A stretch of 41,917 bases of DNA from Nitratireductor sp. (GTDB taxonomy: Bacteria > Pseudomonadota > Alphaproteobacteria > Rhizobiales > Rhizobiaceae): positions 1-41,917 of the forward strand of contig JAGRLT010000049.1 of NCBI GenBank assembly GCA_020441665.1. Reading direction: 5' to 3'. The notes below the pieces were generated by a model. That model did no database searches. It saw nothing but the letters and a program-made list of their open reading frames with translations, and was not told the DNA's origin. Positions 23,296 to 41,917 of this stretch are shown here, one piece after another. The translations under genes and the position numbers were made by a program. Each line of letters starts with the position of its first letter. Position 1 is the first letter of the stretch.

Positions 23296-23320
23296 AGACA
23301 TAATCCCGTGAGACTCCGTC

Positions 23321-25409: not shown

Positions 25410-25574
25410 TTGGTGCGGTGATGGTTCTTCGCTTCGTTTTTCGGTTTTGACGCATCATTGGGCCGGGCGCGCAGCGCCGTCAACGCGCCTTGGCGTTTCC
25501 CTTCGGTGACCGCGCCGCTTGTCCGCCCGTCCTCTTCTTTCGCGTCCGCAAAACAAAGCGAAAGGAGAACCATC

Positions 25575-27548: not shown

Positions 27549-28212
27549 CGACTTCCTCCCCGTTTTCATCGTCGTCCAGGCTGTAAGCCGGACGCGGGAG
27601 TGACGTTTGCGGAATGTCGTGGACGAGTCTGTTACGAAGGTTTTGCGCAGCGTTGACCGCTTCGCGAAGGGATTGAAGCTGCTCCGCCGGAATCTTTGCG
27701 GCGTCCTGGACGGCCCTTAGCTGTTCGGCGGTGCGCTGGCCAGCTTCGGAAATGCTTTTATAGGCTTGTTGCAGCTCGCGAATCGGCTTTCCGATGTTGC
27801 GGAGCGACTCCAGCTCCTTGCCAATATTGCCGATATTTCTGAGGGTCTGGAAGCTCTCTTGCAGCTTCTTAAGCTCATTTAGTTCCGGATAGGCGATCCG
27901 CAGGGCTTTGACGGTATCGAGATTGCGGTTGAGTTCCTTGATCGCTGGCGTTGCCGGGACGGTGGGTGCCGTGCTGCGCACGACGCTTTCGACAGCGGGG
28001 ACGGCCTTGCGCGGGACAAGTTTGACGTCCAGATCAAGAGCGCGGGCCAGTTCAATCAGGCTGGACAGGCGGATATCGGCGTTGCCGTTTTCGATCTTCG
28101 AAATATGGCTTTGCGGCACGCCCGTGCGCTTGCTTAAGGCCCTCTGGCTGAGGCCCTTGGCATCTCTGGCGCGCTTGAGCGCTTCGACTATGTCCTGCGT
28201 TGCGTAGTTCAT
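27541..28212 (-). CDS. hipB: HipB-like antitoxin with long coiled-coil tail
   Basis: A Xre-type repressor and antitoxin for HipA. Residues about 8-62 are a helix-turn-helix (LKRARDAKGLSQRALSKRTGVPQSHISKIENGNADIRLSSLIELARALDL). The product has 223 aa, whereas classical HipB has about 90. The extra 150 residues hold a predicted coiled coil with a near-repeat (FQTLRNIGNIGKELESLRNIGKPIRELQQ, bases near 27770-27855) and an acidic tail DDDENGEEVDG. The extra part may mediate higher-order assembly or bind HipA differently. ATG 28212 has no clear ribosome site, and an AT-rich TAGAAT box ends 8 bases before it, so a leaderless transcript is possible. Confidence 0.88.
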   Translation of the reverse strand: MNYATQDIVEALKRARDAKGLSQRALSKRTGVPQSHISKIENGNADIRLSSLIELARALDLDVKLVPRKAVPAVESVVRSTAPTVPATPAIKELNRNLDTVKALRIAYPELNELKKLQESFQTLRNIGNIGKELESLRNIGKPIRELQQAYKSISEAGQRTAEQLRAVQDAAKIPAEQLQSLREAVNAAQNLRNRLVHDIPQTSLPRPAYSLDDDENGEEVDG

Positions 28213-28349
28213 GATCTGCTATTCTATATCATTCAAGCCTTTCGATATAATTTAGCATATCACAGATTCAAGGCTTGAGTCTAGCAATGATCTATAATAG
28301 CATATCACACTATGGGTATGATATATAAAAACAGATCACGCGTGATTCC
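28213..28349. promoter_or_regulatory. Divergent AT-rich control region with several palindromes
   Basis: This 137-bp gap separates hipB from the GGCT-like gene. It holds TATATC-N13-GATATA (28225-28249), the 9-bp inverted pair TCAAGCCTT / AAGGCTTGA (28233-28241, 28270-28278), the direct repeat TAGCATATCACA at 28253-28264 and 28298-28309, and the palindrome ATCACGCGTGAT (28335-28346) three bases before the ATG at 28350. HipB proteins bind TATC...GATA palindromes, so autoregulation of hipBA and joint control of the divergent gene are likely. Confidence 0.65.
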
Positions 28350-28913
28350 ATGATTGTTTGTCTGGGATGGGGATCGCTGTGTTGGGACCCGCGCACATTG
28401 CCGGTTGAGGCCGGAGAATGGGCGCAGGACGGCCCTGCATTGCCGATCGAGTTTACGCGCGTCTCAAAGGACAATCGCGTGACGCTCGTGGTCACGCCGG
28501 AAGCGCCGGAAACGACCGTACTCTGGAAAGCGCTTGCGCTGGATGACCTGGATGAGGCGATAGCGGCGCTTGCCGAACGCGAAGATATAAGAGAGGCGAA
28601 TATTCCGTACTCCGTCGGCTATTGGAGCGCGGGCCGGACGTCCGATCATCGCGAAGTATCAGTGATTGAGGCATGGGCAACAGGGCGCGGCCTTGATGCC
28701 GTTATCTGGACGGCCTTAAAGCCGCGATTCATGGGCGAAAGTGGCCGTATTCCGGATATCGGTCAGGTAATCGATAGCCTTGATGGGTTGGAAGGTGAGA
28801 CGCGAGCGATTGCCGAGCGATATGTCAGGCGTGCTCCCGTTCAGATTACAACGCCCTATCGTGCTGTTATCGAAGAGAGACTCGGCTGGACGCCTCATGC
28901 AGGGGACCAATAA
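28350..28913 (+). CDS. GGCT-like (gamma-glutamylcyclotransferase fold) protein, unknown role
   Basis: A 187-aa protein starting MIVCLGWGSLCWDPRTLPVE. The WGSL motif after a first strand recalls the YGSL substrate loop of gamma-glutamylcyclotransferase-fold enzymes, followed by PIEFTRVSKDNRVTLVVTP, the usual second strand with a hydrophobic pocket. A possible catalytic acid is Glu in EDIREANIPYSVGYW. The fold assignment is tentative. ATG 28350 lacks a ribosome site and directly follows the ATCACGCGTGAT palindrome. It is divergent from hipBA with a shared control region and is the last gene before attR. Confidence 0.6.
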   Translation: MIVCLGWGSLCWDPRTLPVEAGEWAQDGPALPIEFTRVSKDNRVTLVVTPEAPETTVLWKALALDDLDEAIAALAEREDIREANIPYSVGYWSAGRTSDHREVSVIEAWATGRGLDAVIWTALKPRFMGESGRIPDIGQVIDSLDGLEGETRAIAERYVRRAPVQITTPYRAVIEERLGWTPHAGDQ

Positions 28914-28916
28914 GTC

Positions 28917-28976
28917 TGGCACAATTTTGGCACACTCAGGAGCGATTTCGAGCGATCTGTGGCGATGGTGAGCGAT
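28917..28976 (+). promoter_or_regulatory. Right arm-type site and 10-bp phased repeat array
   Basis: TGGCACAATTTTGGCACACT (28917-28936) is the partner of the left arm site. It is followed by GAGCGAT at 28940, 28950 and 28970, with TGGCGAT at 28960: four motif copies exactly one helical turn apart. Position inside attR fits integrase arm sites plus excisionase or accessory-protein sites. Confidence 0.6.
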
Positions 28977-28986
28977 GCTAAATATC

Positions 28987-29015
28987 TGAAAAGATTGAAT
29001 TTCATAATCTTTTCA
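28987..29015. repeat. 10-bp inverted repeat next to attR
   Basis: TGAAAAGATT (28987-28996) and AATCTTTTCA (29006-29015) are perfect inverse copies around a 9-base loop, 11 bases before the 49-bp att copy. May be a core-flanking protein site or a terminator remnant. Confidence 0.6.
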
Positions 29016-29026
29016 ATGATCTGGAT

Positions 29027-29075
29027 TGCCCTCCGAAGGCAGAGGTCACAGGTTCGAATCCTGTCGGGTGCGCCA
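29027..29075 (+). repeat. attR: 49-bp copy of tRNA-Arg 3' part
   Basis: Exact copy of 23161-23209. It lacks the 5' half of a tRNA and so is not a functional gene. It marks the right end of the island. Confidence 0.93.
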
Positions 29076-29097
29076 CGCTTCACATGTACGGCCCGGA

Positions 29098-29530
29098 TGT
29101 ACAACCCGGAGACATGGGTAACAGATCGTACCTAAGACATGGGTGACAACCTCGTGCCGAACGGGTTGTCGATTGTCCATCGTGTTCCCTGTTCCCGAGT
29201 CGCGCATGCCAGATCGCAGGCCAGGAAGCTCGCGGGACCGACACCTGTCCTCGGTCCCGGCAAGGCCGGGAATCTGGCCCGCAGCGACCTGTGACAGGCC
29301 GGTTTTCATTTGCCGATGCAGATTAGGCCCATAATGGGCGACGCGCACAGTGTGATCATGGTAGGGGCGATCGTGAAAGGGTGTTCCGGTGGCGGCTGAC
29401 GGGTGCGGGGTGAAGGTGTATAGAGTGCCCCCGCTGGCGCCACCGATGCCCCGGCGCTTTTCATGGTGGCCGTAAACCGCGATGAAGGCAGCAAGCTTCT
29501 CCGGCTGCTGGCGGAGATGGAAGGCCGGGG
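29098..29530 (-). pseudogene. IS481-like transposase end and terminal repeat, decayed
   Basis: The minus strand carries pieces of an IS481-family transposase C-terminus in different frames: EKLAAFIAVYGHHEKRRGIGG, then YTPSPR followed by MITLCASPIMGLICIGK (compare the family's CGRICIG segment), then TIDNPFGTRLSPMS with TAG at 29132-29134. Frameshifts separate them. The end TGTACAACCCGGAGACATGGG (from 29098) is similar to terminal inverted repeats of such elements. The 5' part and the left end are missing. The gap 29531-29671 holds nothing recognisable. The identification is from memory of the family ends. Confidence 0.65.
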
Positions 29531-29671
29531 GTGACGGCTTTGAGCCGGGCCATGAATTCCATCCGTTTCGGCGCGGCGTCCGCCGGTCGGTTTCCGGCCT
29601 CATGTGTGCCGCGCTATCGGGGTTCCGGAATTCAACGGGCCGGAAAATCGCTCGCCCGCACCGCAGAGTGT

Positions 29672-29699
29672 TTGACAAATTCTGTATCCTGGATACAGT
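29672..29699 (+). promoter_or_regulatory. Promoter with GntR-type operator (copy 1)
   Basis: TTGACA (29672-29677), a 16-bp spacer and TACAGT (29694-29699). The inverted repeat CTGTATCC-T-GGATACAG (29682-29698) fills the spacer and covers the -10 box, so a bound repressor would block RNA polymerase. It lies 26 bp upstream of the GntR gene. A matching copy occurs at 39110-39137. Confidence 0.75.
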
Positions 29700-29724
29700 T
29701 GTGCGGCGATCTCAGGAAGGATCA

Positions 29725-30420
29725 ATGAGCCAAGCAATCGAATGGCGCAGCCAGTCGCGCCTCCTGGACGAGGTAGCCCAGGCGCTGCGCGAACGAATCT
29801 ATGCCGGGGCATATCCTCCCGGCGCGACGCTTCGCCAGGAGCGGGTTGCCGCGGAATTCGGCATCAGCCGCACGCCGCTCCGCGAGGCCTTCCGGGTTCT
29901 GGAGCGCGATGGCCTTGTCGTCAACAAGCCGGGCAGCGGCGTGAGGGTGGCGACCGCCGACCTGCCGAAGCTTCTGGATGCCTATGCCGTGCGCGAGGCG
30001 ATGGATGGCGTCGCGGCGCGCAGTGCCGCCGAGCGCGCGACCCAGGCCGAGATCAGGAAGCTGGCCAAGCTGGTCGAGTGGCAGGAAAAAGTCGTCAAGA
30101 ACTGGGACGCCAGCGCCTATACCCAGTCCAATGTCGAATTCCATCTGACGATCATCGAGGCGGCGCGCAACGTGTCCCTGGCGCCGCTGGTGCCGCTGCT
30201 GCACATGACGTCCCAGGTGTTCGCGCCGGCGCTCGCCCTGTCCAGCGAAAGGGCGAGTTCCGCGGTCGCCGATCATGGTGAAATCCTCGATGCGATCCGC
30301 AGGCGCGATCCCGATGCGGCCGAACGCGTCGCCCGGGCGCATATCGACGCGACCACCATGCGATTGAAAACACTGCTTGCCAAGCGGCAGGCGACCATCG
30401 GGACATCCATCGGGACATAA
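29725..30420 (+). CDS. GntR-family regulator, FCD (FadR C-terminal) type
   Basis: Ligand-responsive DNA-binding protein of 231 aa. The winged HTH (about 12-75) has LRERIYAGAYPPGATLRQERVAAEFGISRTPLREAFRVLERDGLV. The FCD domain follows with the family's metal-binding pattern visible as Asp/His positions in SNVEFHLTIIEAARN and DHGEILDAIRRRDPDAAERVARAHI. The ribosome site AGGAAGG is 6 bases before ATG 29725. It is the first gene of the operon and is preceded by a perfect palindrome in its own promoter, so autorepression is likely. FCD regulators usually bind small carboxylates. Confidence 0.93.
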   Translation: MSQAIEWRSQSRLLDEVAQALRERIYAGAYPPGATLRQERVAAEFGISRTPLREAFRVLERDGLVVNKPGSGVRVATADLPKLLDAYAVREAMDGVAARSAAERATQAEIRKLAKLVEWQEKVVKNWDASAYTQSNVEFHLTIIEAARNVSLAPLVPLLHMTSQVFAPALALSSERASSAVADHGEILDAIRRRDPDAAERVARAHIDATTMRLKTLLAKRQATIGTSIGT

Positions 30421-30421
30421 T

Positions 30422-31861
30422 GTGAAGACCTACGGCAATTTCATAGCGAACAAGTGGGTCGATGCGGTCAGCGGCGAGCAATTCGGCGTCTTCGACCCGT
30501 CGACCGGCATCGAATTCGCAAAACTGGCCCGAGGGGCCGAAGAGGATGTCGATCTGGCCGTGGGCGCGGCGCGCGAAGCGCTGGCAGGGGAATGGGGGCG
30601 TCTCACCGCCACCGAGCGCGGCCGCATCCTGAGCCGGATTTCAGCCGCGGTGCTGCGCCATGTGGAATTGCTGAGCGAACTGGAGGCCAGAGACGTCGGC
30701 AAGCCGTTGACGCAGGCGCGCGCCGATGTGGTGGCGCTGGCGCGCTACTTCGAGTTCTATGGCGGCGCCGCCGACAAGGTGCATGGCGACACGATTCCCT
30801 ACCAGAACGGTTTCACGGTGCTGACGGTCTATGAGCCGCATGGCGTAACCGGGCACATCATTCCCTGGAACTATCCGATGCAGATCCTTGGCCGCAGCCT
30901 AGGCGCGGCCCTGGCCATGGGCAACGCCGCCGTCGTCAAGCCGGCCGAGGAAGCGTGCCTGACCATCCTGGAATTCGCCCGGATCGCCGAGGAAGAAGGA
31001 TTGCCGGCGGGTGCGGTGAACATCGTTACCGGCTATGGTGCGGAGGCGGGCGCGGCACTGGCCGGCCATCCCGATATCAACCACATCTCCTTTACAGGTT
31101 CCGTGCGCACGGGGGAAATGGTGCAGGCCGCCGCCGCCCGGCATGCCGTTCCGGTGACGCTCGAACTCGGCGGCAAGTCGGCCCAGGTGGTTTTCGCCGA
31201 TGCCGATATCGACCGTGCCGTTCCCTTTCTCGTCAATGCCGGCATTCAGAATGCCGGCCAGACCTGCTCCGCCTCGTCGCGCATCCTTGTCGAGCGCCCG
31301 GTCTATGAAGAGGTGGTCGCGCGGATGAGTGAACGATACCGCGCGCTGAACGTGGGTCCCGCCGACCGCGACCTGGCCGTCGGTCCGGTCGTCTCGCAGC
31401 GTCAGAAGGCGATCGTGGAAGGTTTTCTCGACGACGCCGTTCGCGACGGGCTGAAGGTCGCCGCGCAGGGCGCCGTCGTCGACGATGCCCCGGCCGGCGG
31501 CGCCTATGTCGCGCCGACGCTGCTGCGCGACGTTCCGCACGAGCATCGCGTCGTGCAGGAGGAAATCTTCGGCCCGGTGCAGGTCATCATGCCCTTCGAT
31601 GACGAGGAGGAGGCCGTTCGGCTGGCCAACGGCACGCCTTATGGGCTTGTCTGCGGCATCTGGACAGGCGATGGTGGCCGGCAGTTCCGTCTGGCCCGCG
31701 CGGTCCAGGCGGGCCAGGTATTCATCAACAATTACGGCGCCGGCGGCGGCGTCGAGCTGCCATTCGGCGGCGTCAAGAAATCAGGCCATGGCCGGGAAAA
31801 GGGCTTCGAGGCGCTTTATGGGTTTGCGACCATGAAGACCATATCGGTCCATCACGGTTAG
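30422..31861 (+). CDS. NAD(P)-dependent aldehyde dehydrogenase
   Basis: Oxidises an aldehyde to its acid. The 479-aa protein (GTG start 30422, one base after the GntR stop) carries GHIIPWNYPM with the oxyanion Asn150, VTLELGGKSAQVV with Glu248, NAGQTCSASSR with catalytic Cys282, and EEIFGPVQVIMPFDDEEEAVRLAN. It ends with the usual ELPFGGVKKSGHGREKG. Length and motifs are standard for the broad ALDH group (betaine/aminobutyraldehyde-like); the substrate is unknown. Coupling to the regulator gene and the downstream transporter suggests it processes the imported compound or its breakdown product. A 165-bp gap follows with a weak 6-bp stem at 31909-31931 only. Confidence 0.93.
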   Translation: MKTYGNFIANKWVDAVSGEQFGVFDPSTGIEFAKLARGAEEDVDLAVGAAREALAGEWGRLTATERGRILSRISAAVLRHVELLSELEARDVGKPLTQARADVVALARYFEFYGGAADKVHGDTIPYQNGFTVLTVYEPHGVTGHIIPWNYPMQILGRSLGAALAMGNAAVVKPAEEACLTILEFARIAEEEGLPAGAVNIVTGYGAEAGAALAGHPDINHISFTGSVRTGEMVQAAAARHAVPVTLELGGKSAQVVFADADIDRAVPFLVNAGIQNAGQTCSASSRILVERPVYEEVVARMSERYRALNVGPADRDLAVGPVVSQRQKAIVEGFLDDAVRDGLKVAAQGAVVDDAPAGGAYVAPTLLRDVPHEHRVVQEEIFGPVQVIMPFDDEEEAVRLANGTPYGLVCGIWTGDGGRQFRLARAVQAGQVFINNYGAGGGVELPFGGVKKSGHGREKGFEALYGFATMKTISVHHG

Positions 31862-32026
31862 GCTATAGGAGGTTCGGCAGAAGTTCCGCGAACCCATACC
31901 ACTCGGCCGAGGCGGCCGCTTTCGTCGCCTCGCCACAAGCCTCGACGATCACAGGGATTGCCCTGGGCGTCGACGGTGGAAGACCGATCTGAGTTCTGAC
32001 AACAATCAACCCGGGAGGGAGTGTAT

Positions 32027-33505
32027 ATGCGTAGCGCACTGAAATGGGGGTTAGCCGCCGGCCTTATCGCGATGTCGATGGGTACGGCGTCGGCAAAGGA
32101 CACGCTTACCATCGGCCAGACACTGGAGCCGCCAGGCCTCGATCCCACGGCCGGCGCTGCAGCCCCGATCCGTTACATCACCTATACCAATCTTTATGAA
32201 GGACTGGTGCGGGTGATGCAGGACGGATCGGTCCAGCCGCTGCTGGCCGAGAGCTGGACCGTGTCCGACGACCAGAAAACCTACACGTTCACGCTCCGCC
32301 AGGGCGTCAAGTTCCATGACGGCTCGTCCTTCGATTGCTCGAATGTGAAGTTCTCGTATGAGCGCGCGGTTGCGCCGGATTCCACCAACGCCCAGAAGGG
32401 CCTGTTCGAGCCGATCGAGAAGACCGAGTGCCCGGATGCCGCGACGGCGGTGGTGACGCTGAAGCGGCCGACCTCGAACTTCCTGTTCAACATGGCCTGG
32501 GGCGATGCCGTCATGATGTCGCCGGACTCCGTGGCCGACAACAAGACCAACCCTGTTGGCACCGGCCCGTTCAAGTTCAAGGAATGGGTGAAGGGCGACA
32601 AGGTCGTGCTGGAAAAGAACCCCGACTACTGGGGCACGGCGGCAAAGCTCAGCCAGGTGACGTTCAAGTTCATTTCCGACCCGTCGGCGGCGGCGGCGGC
32701 CATTCAGGCCGGCGATGTCGATGCCTTCACCTCGTTCCAGGCGCCCGAACTGGTCAACCGGTTCCAGAACGACGCCAATCTGCAGGTCGAGATCGGCAGC
32801 ACGTCGGGCAAGGTCGTGCTCGCCCTGAACAATGCCCGCAAACCCTTCGACGACGTTCGCGTGCGCCAGGCTCTGGCCCATGCGATCGACCGCAAGTCCG
32901 TTGCCGAAGGCACCTATTCCGGGTTCGGGGCGCCGATCGGTTCCCACTACACGCCGATCGAGCCGGGCTATGTCGATCTCAACGACGCCTATGCCTACGA
33001 TCCGGCCAAGGCCAAGGAACTGTTGCAGGCCGCCGGCGTGCCGGACGGGTTCGAGATGACCATCCAGTTGCCGCCTCCGACCTATGCGCGCCGCGGTGGC
33101 GAGATCATCGCGGCGATGCTGGCGGAAGTCGGCATCAGGGCGAACCTCGTGCCGCTCGAATTCCCGCAATGGCTTGAACAGGTCTTCAGGGGGTCGGATT
33201 TCGACGCCACGATCATCAACCATGCCGAGGCGCGCGACCTGGATATCTATGCTCGCGACAAATACTACTTCAACTACCAGAATCCGGAATACAAGGCGCT
33301 CTACAAGGCGTTCACGGAAGCCTCCAGCGAGGAACAGCAGATGGACCTCCTCGGCCAGCTTCAGCGCAAGCTGTCGGCCGACGAACCGAACGTGTTCCTC
33401 TACGCCTTCCCCAAAATCGGTGTCTGGAACAAGAAGGTGAAGGGCCTGTGGGTCAACATGCCCGTACCCGCCGACGACGTTACGCAGGCATACTGGGAAG
33501 AATAG
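32027..33505 (+). CDS. ABC transporter substrate-binding protein, family 5 (peptide/nickel type)
   Basis: Periplasmic receptor of 492 aa (SBP_bac_5). Signal peptide MRSALKWGLAAGLIAMSMGTASA with cleavage before KDTLTIG. Typical blocks are YEGLVRVMQDGSVQPLLAESW, YTFTLRQGVKFHDGSSFDCSNVKFSYERA, GTGPFKFKEWVKGDKVVLEKNPDYW and VRQALAHAIDRKSVAEGTY. ATG 32027 is 8 bases after GGAGG; a GTG six bases upstream is too near the ribosome site. Such proteins bind peptides but also opines, glutathione and other amide compounds. Its stop is followed by a strong stem-loop, then the two permease genes. Confidence 0.94.
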   Translation: MRSALKWGLAAGLIAMSMGTASAKDTLTIGQTLEPPGLDPTAGAAAPIRYITYTNLYEGLVRVMQDGSVQPLLAESWTVSDDQKTYTFTLRQGVKFHDGSSFDCSNVKFSYERAVAPDSTNAQKGLFEPIEKTECPDAATAVVTLKRPTSNFLFNMAWGDAVMMSPDSVADNKTNPVGTGPFKFKEWVKGDKVVLEKNPDYWGTAAKLSQVTFKFISDPSAAAAAIQAGDVDAFTSFQAPELVNRFQNDANLQVEIGSTSGKVVLALNNARKPFDDVRVRQALAHAIDRKSVAEGTYSGFGAPIGSHYTPIEPGYVDLNDAYAYDPAKAKELLQAAGVPDGFEMTIQLPPPTYARRGGEIIAAMLAEVGIRANLVPLEFPQWLEQVFRGSDFDATIINHAEARDLDIYARDKYYFNYQNPEYKALYKAFTEASSEEQQMDLLGQLQRKLSADEPNVFLYAFPKIGVWNKKVKGLWVNMPVPADDVTQAYWEE

Positions 33506-33513
33506 GGCGGGTT

Positions 33514-33543
33514 CGGCGCTCACCGATTGGAGGGTGAGCGCCG
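33514..33543 (+). terminator. Perfect 11-bp stem-loop between binding-protein and permease genes
   Basis: CGGCGCTCACC (33514-33524) and GGTGAGCGCCG (33533-33543) pair perfectly around the 8-base loop GATTGGAG, 8 bases after the stop. There is no T-tract. It likely protects the upstream mRNA end and lowers permease output. Confidence 0.7.
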
Positions 33544-33601
33544 GGCTGGCGCCGGTACGCGGCCTCAACGGCCGCGACCGATGCTCATTTGGGAGGCTGT
33601 G

Positions 33602-34552
33602 ATGATTTCCTTTATAAGCGGCCGTCTGCTGTCGTTGATGGTGACGACACTGGTGGCTTCGATCGTCGTGTTCATGCTGATGCAGGTCCTGCCCGGTGAT
33701 CCGGCCCTCATCATCCTGGGTATGAACGCGGAACCCGAAACGGTGGCGGCGCTGCACAGGCAACTCGGCTTTGATCAGCCGATGTGGCTGCGCTATCTCC
33801 AGTGGATCGGCGGCTTCTTCGTGGGCGATTTCGGAACCAGCATCACCTATTCCGTACCGATTTCCGAATTGCTCGGCCCGCGCATCATGGTCACCGTGCC
33901 TCTGGCCCTCATGTCCATGCTCATTTCGATCTTCGGCGCCATCGTCATCGGCGTCTACGCCGCCGCCAACCGGGGCAAGATCGGCGACACGATTGCGATG
34001 GGCATCGCCCAGATCGGCGTCGCCATCCCGAACTTCTGGCTCGCCCTGCTGCTGATCCTGCTGTTCGCGCTCAAGCTGCTCTGGTTTCCGGCATCCGGCT
34101 TCTCCGGCTGGGATGACGGCATCTGGAACGGCCTGCGCTCGCTCGTGCTCCCTGCTCTGGCGCTCGGCCTGCCGCTGGCTGCGATCCTCGGACGCGTCAC
34201 CCGGTCGGCGGTGATCGAGACGCTCGGCGAGGATTTCATCCGCACCGCGCGCGCCAAGGGCCTCAGCCGCTCGGCGGCCCTGTGGAAACATGCCGTGCCC
34301 AATGCGCTTATCCCGGTGGTGACCATTGTCGGCCTGCAATTCTCCTTCCTGCTGGCCGGAACGATCATCATCGAGAACGTCTTCAACCTGCCGGGCATCG
34401 GACGCCTGGTGTTTCAGGCCATCGCGCAGCGTGATCTGGTGACCGTGCAGTCCCTGGTAACGCTCCTGGCCGCATCCGTCATCATCGTGAATTTCGTGGT
34501 CGATCTGGTCTACGGCTATCTCGATCCGCGACTTTCCAATGGGGGGCACTGA
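33602..34552 (+). CDS. ABC transporter permease (DppB/OppB type)
   Basis: Inner-membrane permease of 316 aa with six helices. The first is RLLSLMVTTLVASIVVFMLMQVLPGDPA, the usual DppB start. The EAA-loop motif that docks the ATPase is ETLGEDFIRTARAKGLSRSAALWKHAVPNALIPV. ATG 33602 follows GGGAGG. Its TGA overlaps the next ATG by one base (TGATG), so the pair is translated together. Confidence 0.94.
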   Translation: MISFISGRLLSLMVTTLVASIVVFMLMQVLPGDPALIILGMNAEPETVAALHRQLGFDQPMWLRYLQWIGGFFVGDFGTSITYSVPISELLGPRIMVTVPLALMSMLISIFGAIVIGVYAAANRGKIGDTIAMGIAQIGVAIPNFWLALLLILLFALKLLWFPASGFSGWDDGIWNGLRSLVLPALALGLPLAAILGRVTRSAVIETLGEDFIRTARAKGLSRSAALWKHAVPNALIPVVTIVGLQFSFLLAGTIIIENVFNLPGIGRLVFQAIAQRDLVTVQSLVTLLAASVIIVNFVVDLVYGYLDPRLSNGGH

Positions 34553-35421
34553 TGAGCAACGCATCCAACACCGCCATTGCGGCGGAACCAGGCATCGTCG
34601 TCAGGGTGCTGGCCAGCCGGAACCTCGTGATCGGACTGATCGTCACCTTCATCCTGATCGCCATGGCGCTGGTGTCCTTCGTCTGGACGCCCTTCTCGCC
34701 CACCGCCCTGAATTTTGCCGAAAAGCTTCAGGCGCCGAGCCTCCGGCACTGGTTCGGCACCGACAATTTCGGGCGTGACGTCCTGTCGATGATCATGGTC
34801 GGCGCCCGCAACTCGATCGCGGTATCGATCGTGGCCGTCGTTGTCGGCGCCGGCATCGGCGTTCCGCTCGGTGCGGTGGCCGCCGCGCGTGGCGGCTGGA
34901 TCGACGGCGTGGTGATGCGCATGAGCGATCTCGCCTTCGCCTTTCCCGCCCTGCTGACGGCGGTCATCATCACCGCCATCTTCGGTCCTGGCGCGGTGAA
35001 CGCCATGATCGCCATCGGCATCTTCAACATCCCGGTTTTCGCCCGCGTGACACGCGGCGCGTCGATGGGTCTGTGGAAGCGAGAATACGTGCAGGCCGCC
35101 CGCTGCGCCGGCCGCAGCGATACGGCGATCACCGCGCTCCACATCCTGCCGAACATCAACCACGTGCTGCTGGTACAGGTCACCATCCAGTTCGCGCTGG
35201 CGATCGTCGCCGAGGCGGGGCTTTCCTATGTCGGCCTCGGCGCCCAGCCTCCCATGCCGAGCTGGGGCAAGATGCTGAACGACGCCCAGACCTTCATCTA
35301 CGACGCCCCATGGCTGGCCATTTTCCCCGGCCTGGCGATCACCTTCGCCGTGCTTGGCCTCAATCTGCTGGGTGACGGCCTGCGCGATATTCTCGATCCG
35401 AAAGTAAGGCGCCAAAGATGA
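34552..35421 (+). CDS. ABC transporter permease (DppC/OppC type)
   Basis: Second permease, 289 aa. N-terminal helix NLVIGLIVTFILIAMALVSFVW, then HWFGTDNFGRDVLSMIMVGARNSI, the hallmark of DppC. The EAA loop is KREYVQAARCAGRSDTAITALHILPNINHVLL. The end LLGDGLRDILDPK is typical. It overlaps the following ATPase gene by ATGA. Confidence 0.94.
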   Translation: MSNASNTAIAAEPGIVVRVLASRNLVIGLIVTFILIAMALVSFVWTPFSPTALNFAEKLQAPSLRHWFGTDNFGRDVLSMIMVGARNSIAVSIVAVVVGAGIGVPLGAVAAARGGWIDGVVMRMSDLAFAFPALLTAVIITAIFGPGAVNAMIAIGIFNIPVFARVTRGASMGLWKREYVQAARCAGRSDTAITALHILPNINHVLLVQVTIQFALAIVAEAGLSYVGLGAQPPMPSWGKMLNDAQTFIYDAPWLAIFPGLAITFAVLGLNLLGDGLRDILDPKVRRQR

Positions 35422-36434
35422 CACAACCCCTGCTTCGTATGGCCGACCTGTCGGTCGAACTGCCCATCGGCGACACCAAGATCGACATCATCGCCAACAC
35501 CAATCTGGAGCTTGGCCGCGGTGAGCGGCTCGGCATTGTCGGCGAATCGGGGAGCGGCAAATCGATCACGGCGCTCGCCGTGATGGGCCTGTTGCCGCAG
35601 AAGATGCGCGTGCGCGGCGAGTTGATCTTCGACGGGCACGATCTGGCGAAGATGTCGGAGGAAACCTTCTGCAAGTTTCGCGGAAGACGGATGGCGATGA
35701 TCTTCCAGGAGCCGATGACCGCGCTCAACCCGGTCAAGCCGATCGGCGCGCAGATCGCCGAGGGGCGTATCCTGCATCTGGGCGAAACGCGGGCCGATGC
35801 GGAAAAGCGCGCCCGGCTGCTGCTCGACAAGGTCGGCCTGCCCGCGCCGCGCTTCAACCTCGATCTCTATCCGCACCAGTTGTCCGGCGGCCAGCGGCAG
35901 CGCGTGATGATCGCGACGGCGATCGCCTGCGAACCGGACCTGCTGATCGCCGACGAGCCGACGACAGCGCTGGACGTCACGGTCCAGGCACAGATTCTCG
36001 ACCTGTTGAACGATCTCATCGACGATACCGGCATGACGCTCATGCTGATCACCCACGATCTCGGCGTGGTATCGGAAATGACCAACCGGATCGCGGTCAT
36101 GTATGCCGGCCGTGTCGTGGAGACCGGCCGTACCGACGATGTGTTCGCGCGGATGGCGCATCCATACGCCCGCGGCCTGTTCGCCGCCTCGCCGCATGGC
36201 GCCGGGCTGATGCCCCGGCCGGCGGGGGCCGGCCGGCCGCGGCTGACGGCGATCCCCGGCGTCGTGCCGGACCCGTTCGAGCGACCGCCCTATTGCACCT
36301 TTGCCGACCGTTGCGGTTTCGTGCGGGACGATTGCCGGCAGTCCATGCCGGCGCTTGACCTTCTATCAACCAATGAAGGCATCGAGCATCGCGCCGCCTG
36401 CCTGCATCCCTGTGAAAGCCTGGTACGCCCATGA
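35418..36434 (+). CDS. ABC transporter ATPase (DppD/OppD type)
   Basis: ATP-hydrolysing subunit of 338 aa. Walker A GESGSGKS is at about residue 39, the signature [14 protein letters not shown], Walker [14 protein letters not shown] and the switch His in LITHDLGVV. The oligopeptide-type C-terminal extension is present with four Cys ([17 protein letters not shown] and RAACLH), a pattern that in some Dpp-type ATPases has been linked to an iron-sulfur site. It overlaps both neighbours by ATGA. Confidence 0.95.
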
Positions 36435-37258
36435 CCCAGCCCCTCCTCAAGGTCACCGATGTCGTGCGGGAGTATCGGCTGCCGCGTCCCTCGATCTTCT
36501 CCAAGCAGGAATGGCTGCGCATCCTGCACGGCGTCAGCATCGAGATAGCGCCGGGCGAAAGCCTGGGAATCGTCGGCGAAAGCGGCTCCGGCAAATCCAC
36601 GCTGGCGCGCGCCGTCATGGGGCTGGAGCGCCCGCAATCCGGGCAGATCATGATCGGCGGCAAGGATATCTATGCTCTCGACCGGACCAGCCTGCGGGAC
36701 GCGCGCAAGGGATTTCAGGCGATCTTCCAGGATCCCTATGGCTCGCTCGACCCCCGGCATACGGTGCGGACCATCATCTCCGAACCCGTCGTTTCCCTGG
36801 AGCGCGGCGTGAGCGCGGCGGAGCGCAACCGGCGGGTCGCCGAGGTGCTTGACGCCGTCGGGCTGCCTGCCGCCTCGGCCGACAAATATCCGCACGAATT
36901 CTCCGGCGGCCAGCGCCAGCGCGTCGCCATTGCGAGGGCGCTCATTACCAGGCCGTCGCTGATCGTGGCGGACGAACCGGTTTCCGCGCTTGACGTTTCA
37001 ATTCAGGCGCAGGTGCTGAACCTGATGATGGACCTGCAGGAGAAATTTGGCCTGTCCTATCTGTTCATCAGCCATGATCTGGGCGTCGTGCGCGCCATCA
37101 CGGACCGTGTGGCGGTCATTCATCTCGGTCGGTTCGTCGAACAGGGTCCGACGGGCGAAGTATTCGACAATCCGCAGGACCCGTACACGCAAGCCCTCGT
37201 CGCCGCGGTGCCAAAGCCGTTTTCGGGGCGCCGCAAGAGCAAGCGGCAGCAAAACTGA
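36431..37258 (+). CDS. ABC transporter ATPase (DppF/OppF type)
   Basis: Second ATPase, 275 aa. Walker [16 protein letters not shown] loop IFQDPYGSLDPRHTV, signature [14 protein letters not shown], Walker B LIVADEPVSALDVS and ISHDLGVV. The C-terminal extension is shorter than in typical DppF (about 325 aa), ending after QALVAAVPKPFSGRRKSKRQQN without the Cys-rich tail. It precedes the amidase by 18 bp. Confidence 0.94.
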   Translation: MTQPLLKVTDVVREYRLPRPSIFSKQEWLRILHGVSIEIAPGESLGIVGESGSGKSTLARAVMGLERPQSGQIMIGGKDIYALDRTSLRDARKGFQAIFQDPYGSLDPRHTVRTIISEPVVSLERGVSAAERNRRVAEVLDAVGLPAASADKYPHEFSGGQRQRVAIARALITRPSLIVADEPVSALDVSIQAQVLNLMMDLQEKFGLSYLFISHDLGVVRAITDRVAVIHLGRFVEQGPTGEVFDNPQDPYTQALVAAVPKPFSGRRKSKRQQN

Positions 37259-37276
37259 CATAACGAGAATACCATC

Positions 37277-38668
37277 ATGACCGAACTTGCTGACTTGTCA
37301 GCCGTGGACCTCGTTGAGGGGTATCGCGGCAGGAGGATTTCGCCCGTCGAGGTGATCGAAGCCGTCATCCGACGCGCCGATGCCTGGGAGCCCCGGCTGA
37401 ATGCATTGTGGGCTTACGACCCCGAAGGCGCGCGCGCGGCGGCGCGGGAATCCGAGGCGCGCTGGGTCAAGGGCGAACCCCTCGGCGCGATCGACGGCGT
37501 GCCGGTGACGATCAAGGAGAACATAGCGACCAAAGGCACGCCGATACCGCTTGGTTGCGCAGCGGTGGAACTGGTGCCTGCCACCGCCGATGCGCCGCCG
37601 TCGGCGCGCACGCGCGAGGCCGGCGGCGTGATCATTGCCAAGACGACCATGCCGGACTACGGCATGCTTTCATCCGGCCTGTCCAGCTTTCACAAGCTGG
37701 CGCGCAATCCATGGGATCTGTCGGCTAATCCCGGCGGCTCCAGCGCCGGGGCGGCGGCGGCGGCCGCTGCCGGCTACGGCCCCCTGCACATAGGCACGGA
37801 TATCGGCGGCTCCATCCGGCTTCCCGCCGGCTGGTGCGGTCTTGTCGGCCTGAAGCCATCGGCCGGGCGCCTGCCGATCGACCCGCCTTTCATCGGTCGC
37901 GCGGCCGGGCCGATGACGCGCTGCGTTGCCGATACCGCCCTGTATATGTCCGTCCTGTCGAAGCCGGATCGCCGCGACACCATGGCCCTGCCCTATGAGG
38001 AACTTGACTGGCTCGACCTCGAACGCCCCGTTGCGGGTCTGAAGATCGGCCTGTGGATGGAAGCGGGCTTCGGCCAGCCGGTCGGAGACGAGACCGCCGC
38101 CGCGGTCCGGCAGGCGGCCGCCGTGCTGGCCGATGCGGGCGCGACGATCGTGCCGATCAGGCCCTTCCTCACCCCCACCATGATCGAGGGGCTCGATCGG
38201 TTCTGGCGCGCCCGGGGATATGAGGACGTGTCCCGCCTGACGCCGGAACAGCAGGCCAGGATACTGCCCTACATCTTCGACTGGATCGTGACGGCCAAGG
38301 AGTTCTCGGGGCGTGACGTCTACACCGGCTTTGCCCAGATCGAGGCGATGCGCAATGCTATCCACGGCGCCCTCGAGGGTGTCGACTTCCTCATCTCGCC
38401 AACGGCGCCGGAACCGTCCTATCCCGCCGAATGGGCTTCCCCGTTCAACGATCCGCAAAGGCCGTTCGAGCACATCGCCTTCACGGTTTCGGCCAATATG
38501 GGCGGACAGCCGGCGGTGTCGATCAATTGCGGCTATGCCGGCAACGGTTTGCCGATCGGGCTGCAGATCATCGGCCAACGCTTCGACGACATGGGCGTGT
38601 TGCGGCTCGCCCATGCCTTCGAGGCGATCCGGCCACAACAGCGGCCATGGCCCAGGCTTTCGGAGTGA
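37277..38668 (+). CDS. Amidase-signature hydrolase
   Basis: Hydrolyses an amide bond with a Ser-cisSer-Lys triad. The 463-aa protein shows Lys80 in GVPVTIKEN, Ser155 in NPGGSSAGAA and nucleophile Ser179 in GTDIGGSIRLPAGW, all intact. Length is normal. It has no signal peptide, so it acts in the cytoplasm after import. Placed straight after the transporter, it is the likely first step on the imported compound, cleaving an amide to an acid plus an amine or ammonia. The Gln/Asn-tRNA GatA role is unlikely, since no gatB or gatC is nearby. Its stop is 4 bases before the next start. Confidence 0.93.
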   Translation: MTELADLSAVDLVEGYRGRRISPVEVIEAVIRRADAWEPRLNALWAYDPEGARAAARESEARWVKGEPLGAIDGVPVTIKENIATKGTPIPLGCAAVELVPATADAPPSARTREAGGVIIAKTTMPDYGMLSSGLSSFHKLARNPWDLSANPGGSSAGAAAAAAAGYGPLHIGTDIGGSIRLPAGWCGLVGLKPSAGRLPIDPPFIGRAAGPMTRCVADTALYMSVLSKPDRRDTMALPYEELDWLDLERPVAGLKIGLWMEAGFGQPVGDETAAAVRQAAAVLADAGATIVPIRPFLTPTMIEGLDRFWRARGYEDVSRLTPEQQARILPYIFDWIVTAKEFSGRDVYTGFAQIEAMRNAIHGALEGVDFLISPTAPEPSYPAEWASPFNDPQRPFEHIAFTVSANMGGQPAVSINCGYAGNGLPIGLQIIGQRFDDMGVLRLAHAFEAIRPQQRPWPRLSE

Positions 38669-38672
38669 GACG

Positions 38673-38894
38673 ATGCGCTACCACATCCGCAGTGACGATC
38701 TCGAAAACATCCTCGCCCGTTTCCTCGACAACGTACGTCGCCTGGGGTTGAATGTTTCCCGACTGACCATCGACGTGGAGGGCGAGGAAGCCACGTTGGA
38801 CTTTCATCTGTCCGATGCGCCCGATGCGCTTGCCCATACCCTGGGCGAGCGCATCGCCCTCATCAAGGGCGTGCGGTCCATTCCGGCCGGATGA
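38673..38894 (+). CDS. Small stand-alone ACT-like protein
   Basis: A 73-aa product (MRYHIRSDDLENILARFLDN ... ERIALIKGVRSIPAG) beginning 4 bases after the amidase stop. Predicted beta-alpha-beta-beta-alpha-beta order (LENILARFLDNVRRLGLNVSRLTI, EATLDFHLSD, LAHTLGERIALIKGV) matches an ACT domain and recalls the small subunit IlvM of acetohydroxyacid synthase, but no ilv gene is present. ACT domains bind amino acids or small effectors. It could be a regulatory partner of the amidase. Codon use is like its neighbours, so I take it as real. Confidence 0.7.
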   Translation: MRYHIRSDDLENILARFLDNVRRLGLNVSRLTIDVEGEEATLDFHLSDAPDALAHTLGERIALIKGVRSIPAG

Positions 38895-39109
38895 GCGGGA
38901 TTTTGATCTCGCTCCCGAACCGTTTCGCCCGCCGGCACCGCCGTGGCGATCGGCGGGCTTACTGTGAAGGCGTGTCTGACGGTGCGGTCCTGCCCGTCGC
39001 GCCGGTTCCGCTTGCCGCTCGGCATCGGCGCTGCCGCCGATGCAGCATGCGCCAGCCCAGCGGGCTCCGCCATGCGCCCGCCGGGTTCCGATTATCGATC
39101 AATGATCCA

Positions 39110-39137
39110 TTGACTCGCGCTGTATCCTGGATACAAT
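39110..39137 (+). promoter_or_regulatory. Promoter with GntR-type operator (copy 2)
   Basis: TTGACT (39110-39115), a 16-bp spacer and TACAAT (39132-39137). TGTATCC-T-GGATACA (39121-39135) covers the end of the spacer and the -10 box, with the same spacing as copy 1 at 29672. It lies about 77 bp before the GTG start of the ligase. The rest of the gap 38895-39213 has no credible gene. Confidence 0.75.
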
Positions 39138-39213
39138 TTTGAGCCAGCAAGGTTAGCCGACTCGCCTTTGGAGGCTGGTTGAAGCAGGATTGCGCCAGGG
39201 GAGGGCATATCGG

Positions 39214-40815
39214 GTGCACTGGAACTATGCCGACATTTACGAAGCGATAGCACGAACCGCCCCCGACCTGCCCTGCCAGGTCCAGGGGGATCGAAGCGTG
39301 AGCTGGGGCGAATTCGACACACGCAGCAATGCCGTCGCCAACGCCCTGCTCGGCAAGGGGCTCCCAACCCAGGCCAAGGTCGCGGTCTATCTGCGCAACT
39401 GTCCGGAATTCATCGAGGCCTATGTCGCCTGCTTCAAGGCGAGACTGGTTCCCGTCAACATCAATTACCGCTACGAGCACGACGAACTGGTGCATGTGCT
39501 CGGCAATGCCGATGCCGAGGTCCTGATCTTCCACGCCAGCTATGCGCCGATGGTGGAGCGCTGCCGCGAAAGCCTGCCGCAATTGAAGCATGTCATCGCG
39601 GTAGACGACGGCAATCCTGTGCCGGACTGGGCCGAAGCCTATGACGCGCTGGCCGCCGGCGAGGGCTCGAAGCCCGACGTCGAGCGTTCGGGAGACGATG
39701 CGCTGCTGCTCTATACGGGCGGCACGACGGGCCTGCCGAAGGGTGTGCTCTGGCAGCAGAACGCGGTGATCCAGGCACTGGGTTCGGCGGCGAATTTCTA
39801 TCTGGGGGAAGCACCCTCGACCGGTCTCGACGATGTGGTCAACAGGCTCGATCCCTCGGGCAAGCGGCTCTATGTTGCCTGCCCGCTCATGCATGCCACC
39901 GGCCTGTTCACGAGCTTGTCGCTGATGAACGCCGGATGGACGATTGAAACCACGGCCTCCCAGCGTTTCGACGCCGCCGCCCTGTGGCGCGTGGCGAGCG
40001 ATCATCATGTCAACGCGCTCGTCATTGTCGGCGATGCCTTTGCCCAGCCGCTGCTGGCCGAACTCGATGCCAATGCCGCGAGCTACGATCTCAGCCGCCT
40101 GCAACTGATCATATCGTCGGGATCGAAGTTCTCGCGCGCGGTGCGGGCCGGCATCCTGCGACATCTGCCCGAAATCGTCCTTTCGGACAATTACGGCTCG
40201 TCGGAGGCGCTGCGCGGGGTGCAGACCTACAGCCGGGGCGACAGCATTCCCGAAGATGCAGTGATCTCCCACAGCGATGTCATGCAGATGATGGACGATG
40301 CCGGGCGCCTGCTCGATACCACGGTTCCCGGGCATCGCGGCATGCTGCTCATCAAGGGGCATCTCGCCATCGGCTATTACAAGGATCCTGAAAAGACCCA
40401 GGCGACCTACGTCACTGTCGGCGATACGCGCTATTGCGTTACCGGCGATTTTGGCGTGGTCGAACCCGACGGCAACATTCGCCTGGTCGGGCGGGGCTCG
40501 TCGGTGATCAATACCGGTGGCGAGAAGGTTTTCCCCTATGAGGTGGAGATGGTGATCCGCCGGCATGAAGCGATCGCCGATGTCGCGGTGATCGGGCTGC
40601 CGCATGAGCGCTTTGGCCAGGCCGTGGCGGCCCTCGTGGTGCCGCGCCCGGGGGCCGATCTCGATCGCGGCCTGCTGGCCGATCATGTCAAGCAGCATCT
40701 GGCGGCCTACAAGGCGCCACGTGAAATGTTCGTGGTCGATGTCATCCCGCGCACGGCGGCGGGCAAGATCGACCACCGAGCCTGTCTGGCCCTCGTGCAG
40801 GCGATGGGCAACTGA
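39214..40815 (+). CDS. Acyl-CoA synthetase (AMP-forming, FadD-like)
   Basis: Activates a fatty or other carboxylic acid with ATP and CoA. The 533-aa protein starts at GTG 39214, seven bases after GGGGAGGG (an upstream TTG at 39190 has no such site). ANL motifs in order: LLYTGGTTGLPKGVLW (P-loop, with Gly-Gly where most have Ser-Gly), LSDNYGSSEALRG, YCVTGDFGVVEPDGNIRLVGR, GSSVINTGGEKVFPYEVE and the A10 Lys in RTAAGKIDHRA. It resembles steroid/fatty acyl ligases of actinobacteria and proteobacteria. Its promoter carries the second GntR operator. It is followed after 28 bp by the acyltransferase. Confidence 0.92.
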   Translation: MHWNYADIYEAIARTAPDLPCQVQGDRSVSWGEFDTRSNAVANALLGKGLPTQAKVAVYLRNCPEFIEAYVACFKARLVPVNINYRYEHDELVHVLGNADAEVLIFHASYAPMVERCRESLPQLKHVIAVDDGNPVPDWAEAYDALAAGEGSKPDVERSGDDALLLYTGGTTGLPKGVLWQQNAVIQALGSAANFYLGEAPSTGLDDVVNRLDPSGKRLYVACPLMHATGLFTSLSLMNAGWTIETTASQRFDAAALWRVASDHHVNALVIVGDAFAQPLLAELDANAASYDLSRLQLIISSGSKFSRAVRAGILRHLPEIVLSDNYGSSEALRGVQTYSRGDSIPEDAVISHSDVMQMMDDAGRLLDTTVPGHRGMLLIKGHLAIGYYKDPEKTQATYVTVGDTRYCVTGDFGVVEPDGNIRLVGRGSSVINTGGEKVFPYEVEMVIRRHEAIADVAVIGLPHERFGQAVAALVVPRPGADLDRGLLADHVKQHLAAYKAPREMFVVDVIPRTAAGKIDHRACLALVQAMGN

Positions 40816-40843
40816 CCGTTATCCGTTCGAAAGGGGTACGCGC

Positions 40844-41917
40844 ATGGAGCGCATGAGCATGATCGATGCCTCGTTTCTCTATATGGAGAACGAGTTCGAC
40901 CTGCACCACAACGCCTGGCTCGGCATCTTCGCCGGCCCGGCCCCCACGGGGGCCGCGTTCCGCGGGCACATAGCGTCCAAGCTGCCGCGAATCCCGCGCT
41001 ACCGGCAGCGGGTCCGGTTCGTGCCCCATGACCTCGCCGCGCCCGTCTGGGTCGACGACCAGCACTTCAACCTGAACTATCACGTCCGCGCCATCGCCCT
41101 GCCCGCCCCCGGCAGCGAAGAACAGCTGAAGGAACTGTTCACCACGCTGATGGCGGAACCGCTCGACCGTAACAAGCCGCTGTGGGATATGTGGCTGGTC
41201 GATGGGCTGGAAGGCGGCCGCTGGGCGCTGATCTCGCGGCTGCACCATTGCATGGCCGATGGGGTGAGCACGACCGACATCACCACCACCGTTCTCGACC
41301 GGGAGCCGCAGGCGGCGACCGTCGACGTGGTCGACGACTGGAAGCCGGAGCCGCCGCCCACCGATGCCGAACTCGTGCAGGCGGCGCTGATCGAATCGCA
41401 GCAATCGGACGTCGAGCAGGTGAGCCGCTACGACACCTGGGTCAATTCGCTGAAGGCGCAGATGGTGGAAGTCGACAAGGCCTTCGCCTCGCTCAAGAGC
41501 AGTTTCGCCAACCCGCTGTCCATTACCAGCCTCAACGGCCCGATCGGCCCCTATCGCCGCTGGGCATGGGCCAAGGCCAGCCTTGCCGACATTGCCTCCG
41601 TGCGCGCCTGCCTTGGCGGAACGGTCAACGACATCGTGCTCGCCACCGTAACCGGCGCATTCCGCGAACTGCTGCTGTCGCGCGGCGAGGCGGTCGCCGA
41701 CCGGACCATTCGTTGCCTGGTGCCGGTTTCGGTGCGCAGCATCGGCGAGATGGGAGGAAACCGGATCGCCAGCATGTATGCGGAACTTCCGGTCGGCATC
41801 GCCGATCCCCGGGAGCGGCTGGCCAGCATCCGCACGCAGATGGATGGCCTCAAGGCATCCAAGCAGGCGCTTGCGGCCGATGTGCTCGCCTCGCTGGCCG
41901 GCTTCCAGCCGCCCGCC
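40844..41917 (+). CDS. Wax ester synthase / diacylglycerol acyltransferase (WS/DGAT), 5' part
   Basis: Transfers an acyl group from acyl-CoA to an alcohol or diacylglycerol. The frame from ATG 40844 (MERMSMIDASFLYMEN) stays open to the window edge, giving 358 residues of a family of about 460-500. The catalytic HHxxxDG is HHCMADG (His134-His135, Asp139). PLDRNKPLWDMWLVDGLEGGRWALI precedes it as usual, and the second family motif GGTVNDIVLATVTGAFRELL is present. It is in one operon with the ligase, which would supply its acyl-CoA. The right end lies outside the window. Confidence 0.92.
   Translation, partial: MERMSMIDASFLYMENEFDLHHNAWLGIFAGPAPTGAAFRGHIASKLPRIPRYRQRVRFVPHDLAAPVWVDDQHFNLNYHVRAIALPAPGSEEQLKELFTTLMAEPLDRNKPLWDMWLVDGLEGGRWALISRLHHCMADGVSTTDITTTVLDREPQAATVDVVDDWKPEPPPTDAELVQAALIESQQSDVEQVSRYDTWVNSLKAQMVEVDKAFASLKSSFANPLSITSLNGPIGPYRRWAWAKASLADIASVRACLGGTVNDIVLATVTGAFRELLLSRGEAVADRTIRCLVPVSVRSIGEMGGNRIASMYAELPVGIADPRERLASIRTQMDGLKASKQALAADVLASLAGFQPPA

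What the first reader, a model, noticed from the sequence alone, without database searches (positions are those of the whole stretch)
29672..39137. Twin palindromic operators with identical promoter geometry bracket the amide-uptake genes
CTGTATCCTGGATACAG before the GntR gene and TGTATCCTGGATACA before the ligase both sit between a TTGAC(A/T) -35 box and a TACA(G/A)T -10 box with a 16-bp spacer. The agreement strongly suggests one regulator and one regulon of about 12 kb, giving a precise motif for an uncharacterised FCD regulator.
Basis: seen in the sequence. Interest (0 to 1): 0.7.

Follow-up and report, generated by a model that had tools for sequence, protein, structure and literature searches.

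The report
Twin operators of a GntR regulator
Two identical DNA switches sit inside the promoters that flank a bacterium's amide-uptake gene cluster, and comparison with related bacteria shows that the switch travels with one neighbouring regulator gene, so the regulator's target sequence can be named with confidence although binding has not been measured.

Summary
TGTATCCTGGATACA occurs exactly at 29683-29697 and 39121-39135, each between TTGAC(A/T) and TACA(G/A)T with a 16-bp spacer. No other copy within 2 mismatches exists in the 3.34-Mb draft genome.

All 40 fetched orthologues of the adjacent FCD-type GntR gene (44-80% identical; Ensifer, Ochrobactrum/Brucella, Paeno- and Pseudochrobactrum) carry TGTATCCnGGAT upstream, at a fixed distance from a TTGA. 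None of 28 fetched paralogue loci does. In one Ensifer genus 15 of 16 genomes have site and regulator; the sixteenth has neither.

Most likely the GntR protein represses its own nine-gene operon and, only in this strain among those searched, an added acyl-CoA ligase promoter (site B). Site B rests on sequence and geometry alone.

What departs from the textbook is the operator: published FadR/FCD operators have GT-N2/3-AC (PMC4494728); here it is GT-N9-AC, with the right-hand AC kept in only 11 of 41 sequences. The cluster appears to have lost its SDR gene (a 3' remnant remains) and gained the ligase. Substrate and binding are untested.

The parts
29672..29699 (+). promoter A: TTGACA, 16 bp, TACAGT, upstream of the GntR gene
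   Evidence: TTGA at the same distance in 41 of 41 sequences and TTGAC in 35 of 41
29682..29698 (.). operator A, CTGTATCCTGGATACAG (core TGTATCCTGGATACA 29683-29697), between -35 and -10 and overlapping -10
   Evidence: footprint in 40 of 40 orthologous loci
29725..30420 (+). GntR/FCD regulator, 231 aa, predicted to bind both operators
   Evidence: Pfam GntR 3.4e-18 and FCD 2.5e-25 (given from 29719); orthologues 44-80% identical
30422..31861 (+). aldehyde dehydrogenase; start GTG inferred from the reading
   Evidence: Pfam Aldedh 2.1e-153; GQTC and ELGGK motifs present
31875..31992 (+). 3' remnant of the SDR oxidoreductase gene that lies here in relatives
   Evidence: two frames read like the SDR C-terminus; an SDR match lies between aldehyde dehydrogenase and binding protein in 39 of 40 genome-contig loci, the fortieth (L078) being too short to show it; best SDR elsewhere in the genome, by E-value, 35% identical
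32027..33505 (+). ABC solute-binding protein, family 5
   Evidence: Pfam SBP_bac_5 4.5e-93
33602..34552 (+). ABC permease 1
   Evidence: Pfam BPD_transp_1
34552..35421 (+). ABC permease 2
   Evidence: Pfam BPD_transp_1
35418..36434 (+). ABC ATPase 1
   Evidence: Pfam ABC_tran, oligo_HPY
36431..37258 (+). ABC ATPase 2
   Evidence: Pfam ABC_tran, oligo_HPY
37277..38668 (+). amidase (amidase-signature family)
   Evidence: Pfam Amidase 1.3e-88; NCBIfam NF005450 765.6 bits over a cut-off of 458; KEN, GGSSAG and DIGGSIR motifs present
38673..38894 (+). 73-aa ORF of unknown family, kept next to the amidase in most Ensifer-type loci
   Evidence: no NCBIfam hit, no significant Pfam hit; 47-58% identical copies after the amidase in 7 of 10 Ensifer-type genome-contig loci
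39110..39137 (+). promoter B: TTGACT, 16 bp, TACAAT, upstream of the ligase
39121..39135 (.). operator B, TGTATCCTGGATACA, same geometry as operator A
39214..40815 (+). acyl-CoA ligase; start GTG inferred
   Evidence: Pfam AMP-binding 2e-53 (given from 39208); NF005863 563.8 bits over a cut-off of 543
40844..41917 (+). wax ester synthase/DGAT-like acyltransferase, cut by the contig end; 28 bp after the ligase, so probably co-transcribed
   Evidence: Pfam WS_DGAT_cat 1.1e-61; gap

Best explanation
The GntR/FCD protein encoded at 29725-30420 is a local repressor. As a dimer it binds TGTATCCnGGATACA, which fills the spacer and overlaps the -10 box of its own promoter, blocking RNA polymerase on an autoregulated operon (GntR, aldehyde dehydrogenase, binding-protein ABC importer, amidase, small ORF). 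In this strain the same operator-promoter also stands before an acyl-CoA ligase and a WS/DGAT gene. An inducer, probably a carboxylate held by the FCD domain's Asn-His-His-His site, releases the repressor so that amide import, hydrolysis, aldehyde oxidation and CoA activation of the acid are switched on together. Shown: sites, geometry, conservation, co-occurrence of site and regulator, gene families. Inferred: binding, repression, inducer class, order of the pathway, and that site B answers to the same protein.
For: Two exact sites with the same promoter geometry and no third within 2 mismatches in the genome. Footprint: the 11 positions of TGTATCC and GGAT are invariant in 41 of 41 distinct sequences (40 loci plus site A), while 43 of the 47 columns from -60 to -14 carry under 0.6 bit, mean 0.30. 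0 of 28 fetched paralogue loci carry it at up to 2 mismatches. In 394 family genomes 8 of 9 exact sites lie upstream of this gene, the ninth is site B. Ensifer genus: 15 of 16 genomes have the site beside a 76-80% identical GntR; G819 has neither. The gene order is conserved in relatives. DNA-contact residues E39, S48, R49, T50, R53 and G70 are invariant in 40 of 40 orthologues; H184 and H206 in 40 of 40, N136 and H140 in 39 of 40. Precedent: the FCD repressor Atu1419 binds identical palindromes placed between -35 and -10 of its own promoter and over -10 of others, and carries Zn on three His and an Asn or Asp (PMC7797058, passages).
Against: No binding or expression data. The operator does not fit the published FadR-subfamily consensus (GT-N2/3-AC; PMC4494728), so half-site recognition by this protein is not explained. 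In 6 of 41 sequences (Pseudochrobactrum group) the hexamer at the 16-bp spacing is TAATCA, so the -10 geometry is not universal. Site B was found in no other genome searched, and none of the 11 fetched loci of its 39-44% identical relatives carries the motif. The genome is a 93.65% complete draft, so further sites could be missing.
Confidence: 0.82

Rival explanations
1. The GntR protein binds site A only. Site B is a functional promoter whose palindrome is a relic or a copy of an Ensifer-type GntR promoter that no longer matters for the ligase.
For: Site B is unique to this genome among those searched. Over 35 columns B is 27-28 identical to each of ten Ensifer-type GntR promoters, against 25 to site A.
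Against: B is an exact palindrome with the same -35/operator/-10 spacing; a non-functional copy would be expected to drift. The promoter scan scores A and B alike, 10 of 12.
Confidence: 0.12
2. The palindrome is the site of a different regulator encoded elsewhere, and the GntR protein binds another, undetected site.
For: The site departs from the FCD operator consensus.
Against: The site co-occurs with the GntR gene and is otherwise nearly absent. A trans-encoded regulator with one site per genome, always at this gene, is unlikely. By eye I saw no other palindromic run of conserved columns in the 105 aligned; no palindrome search was run on them.
Confidence: 0.05
3. The protein activates rather than represses from these sites.
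For: Not excluded by sequence.
Against: The site fills the -35/-10 spacer and overlaps -10, a position used by the FCD repressor Atu1419 (PMC7797058).
Confidence: 0.05

Closest known systems
Atu1419 of Agrobacterium fabrum (FCD/VanR-group repressor; PMC7797058, passages seen; that PDB 6z74 is Atu1419 is recalled)
   Same: FCD-GntR of a related alphaproteobacterium; identical palindromes placed between -35 and -10 or over -10; binds its own promoter region; three His plus Asn or Asp metal site
   Different: 10-bp operator ATGTATACAT with GT-N2-AC against a 15-bp TGTATCCnGGATACA; regulates hydroxycinnamate genes; tetramer with looping, whereas here the two sites are 9.4 kb apart and the oligomeric state is unknown
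FadR-subfamily operators in general (PMC4494728, sections 5 and 10 read, passages)
   Same: Palindromic operator; conserved Arg in the recognition helix
   Different: Consensus TKGT/ACMA with GT and AC 3 or 2 nt apart; here 9 nt apart, the right-hand AC is kept in 11 of 41, and HTH position 28 is R, K, H or Q in orthologues
Ensifer and Ochrobactrum-group copies of the same cluster (e.g. Ensifer canadensis pT173d)
   Same: Regulator, operator, -35 spacing and gene order
   Different: They keep the SDR gene (39 of 40 loci). The ligase is not found in 16 Ensifer-genus genomes at E 1e-60 nor in G022 at E 1e-100, and those genomes have no second promoter-placed operator
PDB 7xp0, 'Probable transcriptional regulator' (best PDB sequence match, 1.7e-34; that it is Pseudomonas PmiR is recalled)
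   Same: Similar over residues 15-218 of the 227-position profile
   Different: Family-level similarity only; its operator was not looked up (one search gave a listing that I did not open)

Membership tests
GntR superfamily, FCD (FadR) subfamily | N-terminal GntR winged helix and C-terminal FCD domain | tested here: met
   Pfam GntR 65.5 bits (cut-off 27) and FCD 89.8 bits (cut-off 24.3)
GntR superfamily, FCD (FadR) subfamily | Recognition-helix residues that contact DNA in FadR (Arg-45, Thr-46, Arg-49 equivalents) | tested here: met
   R49, T50, R53 in 40 of 40 orthologues; the equivalence was aligned by eye to Table 1 of PMC4494728
GntR superfamily, FCD (FadR) subfamily | Operator with TKGT/ACMA boxes, GT and AC 2-3 nt apart | tested here: not met
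   GT-N9-AC in the window; the position of the right-hand C is C in 11, T in 24 and A in 6 of 41. Exceptions such as NanR and BioR exist in the subfamily, so this does not exclude the protein
Metal-binding FCD regulators | Asn or Asp plus three His in the FCD domain | tested here: inconclusive
   N136 and H140 in 39, H184 and H206 in 40 of 40 orthologues, assigned by eye; no structure could be predicted
Local autoregulated repressor | Conserved palindrome overlapping the core promoter of the regulator's own operon | tested here: met
   promoter boxes are consensus matches, not mapped starts
Local autoregulated repressor | Direct binding and derepression by a ligand | not testable with these tools
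   needs gel shift and expression assays

The most novel reading that the evidence does not exclude
This orthologous group is an FCD-GntR branch with a non-canonical operator: a 15-bp dyad TGTATCCnGGATACA whose conserved heart is ATCC-n-GGAT, not GT-N2/3-AC. Since the recognition-helix Arg, Thr and Arg are kept, the two DNA-binding domains would have to sit about half a helical turn further apart, or read the half-site in the opposite polarity, which means a dimer geometry not described for FCD regulators in the papers seen here. In the window strain the operator-promoter has in addition been reused to recruit an acyl-CoA ligase while the operon's SDR was being lost.
Probability: 0.35. Interest if true: 0.55.

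Novelty: new variant of a known kind. Interest (0 to 1): 0.42.

Why it matters
It gives a readily testable regulator-operator pair for a conserved nine-gene catabolic cluster shared by Ensifer and the Ochrobactrum group, with six natural operator variants among 41 sequences to guide a mutational scan. The operator breaks the published FCD spacing rule, so a structure would show how this large regulator family can change half-site spacing. Site B would be an example of a gene joining a local regulon by acquiring an exact operator-promoter.

Tried and rejected
Duplication of a longer stretch to make site B from site A: A and B share 25 of 35 columns, much of it operator and promoter hexamers; B shares 27-28 and A 24-27 with ten Ensifer-type promoters. 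No extended copy is visible, so a local duplication is not supported.

Extra regulon members: the third TGTATCCNGGAT in the genome (C30) lies inside a long ORF. The additional 1-mismatch site of G824 lies inside a 2.3-kb ORF, not in a promoter. Two 2-mismatch hits in L057 and L058 overlap the end of the aldehyde dehydrogenase match. The 3-mismatch hits listed were not examined.

An alternative home for the missing SDR: the 21 listed SDR matches in the genome are 27-37% identical.

Origin of the ligase: at E 1e-100 no match in 60 relatives besides the window's genome; at E 1e-60 none in 16 Ensifer-genus genomes; at E 1e-120 ten of 384 other class genomes at 39-44% (which scored at most 3 candidates per genome); five plasmids at up to 44%. 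Unresolved.

Published operator: no paper with GTATCCTGGATAC or ATCCNGGAT; GGATACA with GntR gave 9 papers and TGTATCC with 'GntR family' 6, none seeming to concern such an operator from title and abstract start, none opened. Ensifer adhaerens with amidase, aldehyde dehydrogenase, GntR and ABC transporter gave 0. Only the open-licence library was searched.

Substrate: the PDB relatives listed for the amidase are GatA and aryl acylamidase, and those of the binding protein are peptide, nickel, haem and opine-type binders among others, so no substrate is assigned.
Full report
Observation. The window is the whole of contig C5 (41,917 bases) of a draft genome of 3,343,299 bases in 173 contigs, 93.65% complete. 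TGTATCCTGGATACA is present exactly at 29683-29697 and 39121-39135. Both lie in promoters of the same layout: TTGACA 29672-29677, 16 bp, TACAGT 29694-29699, and TTGACT 39110-39115, 16 bp, TACAAT 39132-39137 (read). A separate consensus scan of 28900-41917 returns exactly these two on the + strand. The window has no other site at up to 3 mismatches (0.30 expected, 0 of 100 shuffles reach the observed count) and the genome none at up to 2.

Gene content. From 29725: GntR/FCD regulator, aldehyde dehydrogenase, family-5 binding protein, two permeases, two ATPases, amidase, and a 73-aa ORF without a family; then promoter B, an acyl-CoA ligase and a WS/DGAT acyltransferase cut off by the contig end. 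Gaps run from -4 to 28 bp except 165 bp after the aldehyde dehydrogenase, 96 bp after the binding protein and 319 bp before the ligase, which holds promoter B. No terminator-like site was found on the + strand in 28900-41917, so read-through from operon A into the ligase is possible.

Is the motif tied to the regulator? A first protein search of 101 relatives found, besides the window, one clear orthologue (G022, 66%), with TGTATCCAGGATATT starting 47 bp before the matched stretch; 28 of 28 fetched paralogue loci (L003-L030, 31-39% identical; many more listed matches were not fetched) have no site at up to 2 mismatches. A scan of 394 family genomes for exact TGTATCCNGGATACA gave 9 sites in 8 genomes: two in the window, and seven in genus g111, all seven upstream of a 76-78% identical GntR gene. 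G259 of that genus has the contig length of Ensifer adhaerens Casida A plasmid pCasidaAA, so g111 is taken to be Ensifer. In that genus 15 of 16 genomes carry the exact site, all 15 beside a 76-80% identical GntR gene. One of them, G824, has an additional 1-mismatch site, which lies inside a 2.3-kb ORF. G819, the genome without a site, has no orthologue either (best 34%). The six other genomes of the window's own genus have no exact site and no orthologue (listed matches at most 32%), so the cluster is patchy there.

Footprint. All 40 have the site, ending 25-57 bp before the start of the matched stretch: 10 with 0, 7 with 1 and 23 with 2 mismatches outside the central base. With site A added (41 distinct 105-base stretches), the positions of TGTATCC and GGAT are invariant in 41 of 41, TTGA begins 11 bases before the site in 41 of 41, and TTGAC in 35 of 41. 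43 of 47 columns from -60 to -14 carry under 0.6 bit, mean 0.30; downstream, columns of the presumed ribosome-binding site are also conserved. The hexamer at the 16-bp spacing is TACAAT in 10, TACAGT in 1, TATTGT in 14, TATAGT in 7, TATTCT in 2, TGTAGT in 1 and TAATCA in 6. In the last six a -10 box at this spacing is not recognisable, which is a result against a fully fixed promoter geometry.

What the site looks like against known FCD operators. A comparative study of FadR-subfamily sites gives TKGT/ACMA with GT and AC 3 nt, in some groups 2 nt, apart, with NanR and BioR as exceptions (PMC4494728, sections 5 and 10 read). Here GT and AC are 9 nt apart and the right AC is kept in only 11 of 41, so the conserved heart is ATCC-n-GGAT. 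Yet the helix residues equivalent to FadR Arg-45, Thr-46 and Arg-49 are invariant in 40 of 40 orthologues, while the residue at HTH position 28 is H in 28, R in 8, K in 2 and Q in 2 (equivalences by eye). The protein is therefore an ordinary FCD regulator by domain, but its operator is non-canonical. The closest functional precedent seen is Atu1419, which binds identical palindromes between -35 and -10 and over -10 (PMC7797058, passages). The three His and one Asn or Asp of metal-binding FCD domains (same paper) have likely equivalents N136, H140, H184 and H206 (conserved in 39, 39, 40 and 40 of 40), which points to a carboxylate-type inducer; this is inference.

Evolution of the cluster. In relatives the order is GntR, aldehyde dehydrogenase, SDR, binding protein, permeases, ATPases, amidase, followed in 7 of 10 Ensifer-type loci by the 73-aa ORF (annotated example). 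In the window the SDR is reduced to a 3' remnant at about 31875-31992 that reads in two frames, and the SDRs found elsewhere in the genome are at most 37% identical. The ligase matched 1 of 61 relatives, the window itself, at E 1e-100, 0 of 16 Ensifer-genus genomes at E 1e-60, and 11 of 385 class genomes at E 1e-120, the window and ten others at 39-44% identity. The loci gave no ligase match at 40% or more, but most of them end about 1 kb or less after the amidase. None of the 11 fetched loci of ligase relatives has the motif (at least 4 mismatches). Site B is therefore supported only by exact identity and geometry. It is more similar to Ensifer-type GntR promoters (27-28 of 35 columns) than to site A (25 of 35), so its source is open.

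Mechanism. Best reading: an autoregulated local repressor with two promoters in this strain. Pathway order (amide import, hydrolysis, aldehyde oxidation, CoA activation) is inferred from families only; motifs expected of active amidase, aldehyde dehydrogenase, ligase and acyltransferase are present (the motif assignments are recalled). No substrate can be named.

Verdict. It is a new, well-defined regulator-operator pair of a known family, made more interesting by an operator that breaks the family's spacing rule and by a recruited second promoter.

Noticed in passing
window 23133-29075: The last 40 bases of tRNA-Arg(ccg) (23170-23209) are repeated exactly at 29036-29075, bounding a 5.9-kb stretch that looks like an integrated island and ends about 600 bp before the GntR operon. 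It holds ArdC-type antirestriction (25572-26390) and HipA/HTH (26319-28212) genes and, at 23321-23857, an ORF that looks like a truncated tyrosine integrase (recalled, no HMM run).
   Followed up: partly
window 31875-31992: Remnant of the SDR gene that is present in the relatives' clusters.
   Followed up: yes
window 39099-39113: A second imperfect palindrome, TCAATG-ATC-CATTGA, overlaps the -35 box of promoter B (read); a 6-3-6 dyad could be chance.
   Followed up: no
window 29046-29678, - strand: This ORF ends in RTRQDSNL, apparently because it reads antisense through the duplicated tRNA end; probably not a gene.
   Followed up: no
L076: The record titled Bacillus subtilis SK6B4 carries a Pseudochrobactrum-like cluster; probably mislabelled or contaminated.
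   Followed up: no
L083: The Brucella cytisi copy of the regulator is only 44% identical in its best segment, with an in-frame stop in the match although its operator is normal; broken gene or draft error.
   Followed up: no
window 38673-38894: A 73-aa ORF with no significant Pfam or NCBIfam match is kept directly after the amidase in 7 of 10 Ensifer-type loci (47-58% identity) but was not found in the Ochrobactrum-group loci held.
   Followed up: partly
G824:C3:106824-106838 (L116): A second, 1-mismatch copy of the operator in one Ensifer-genus genome lies inside a 2.3-kb ORF, so it is probably chance.
   Followed up: yes
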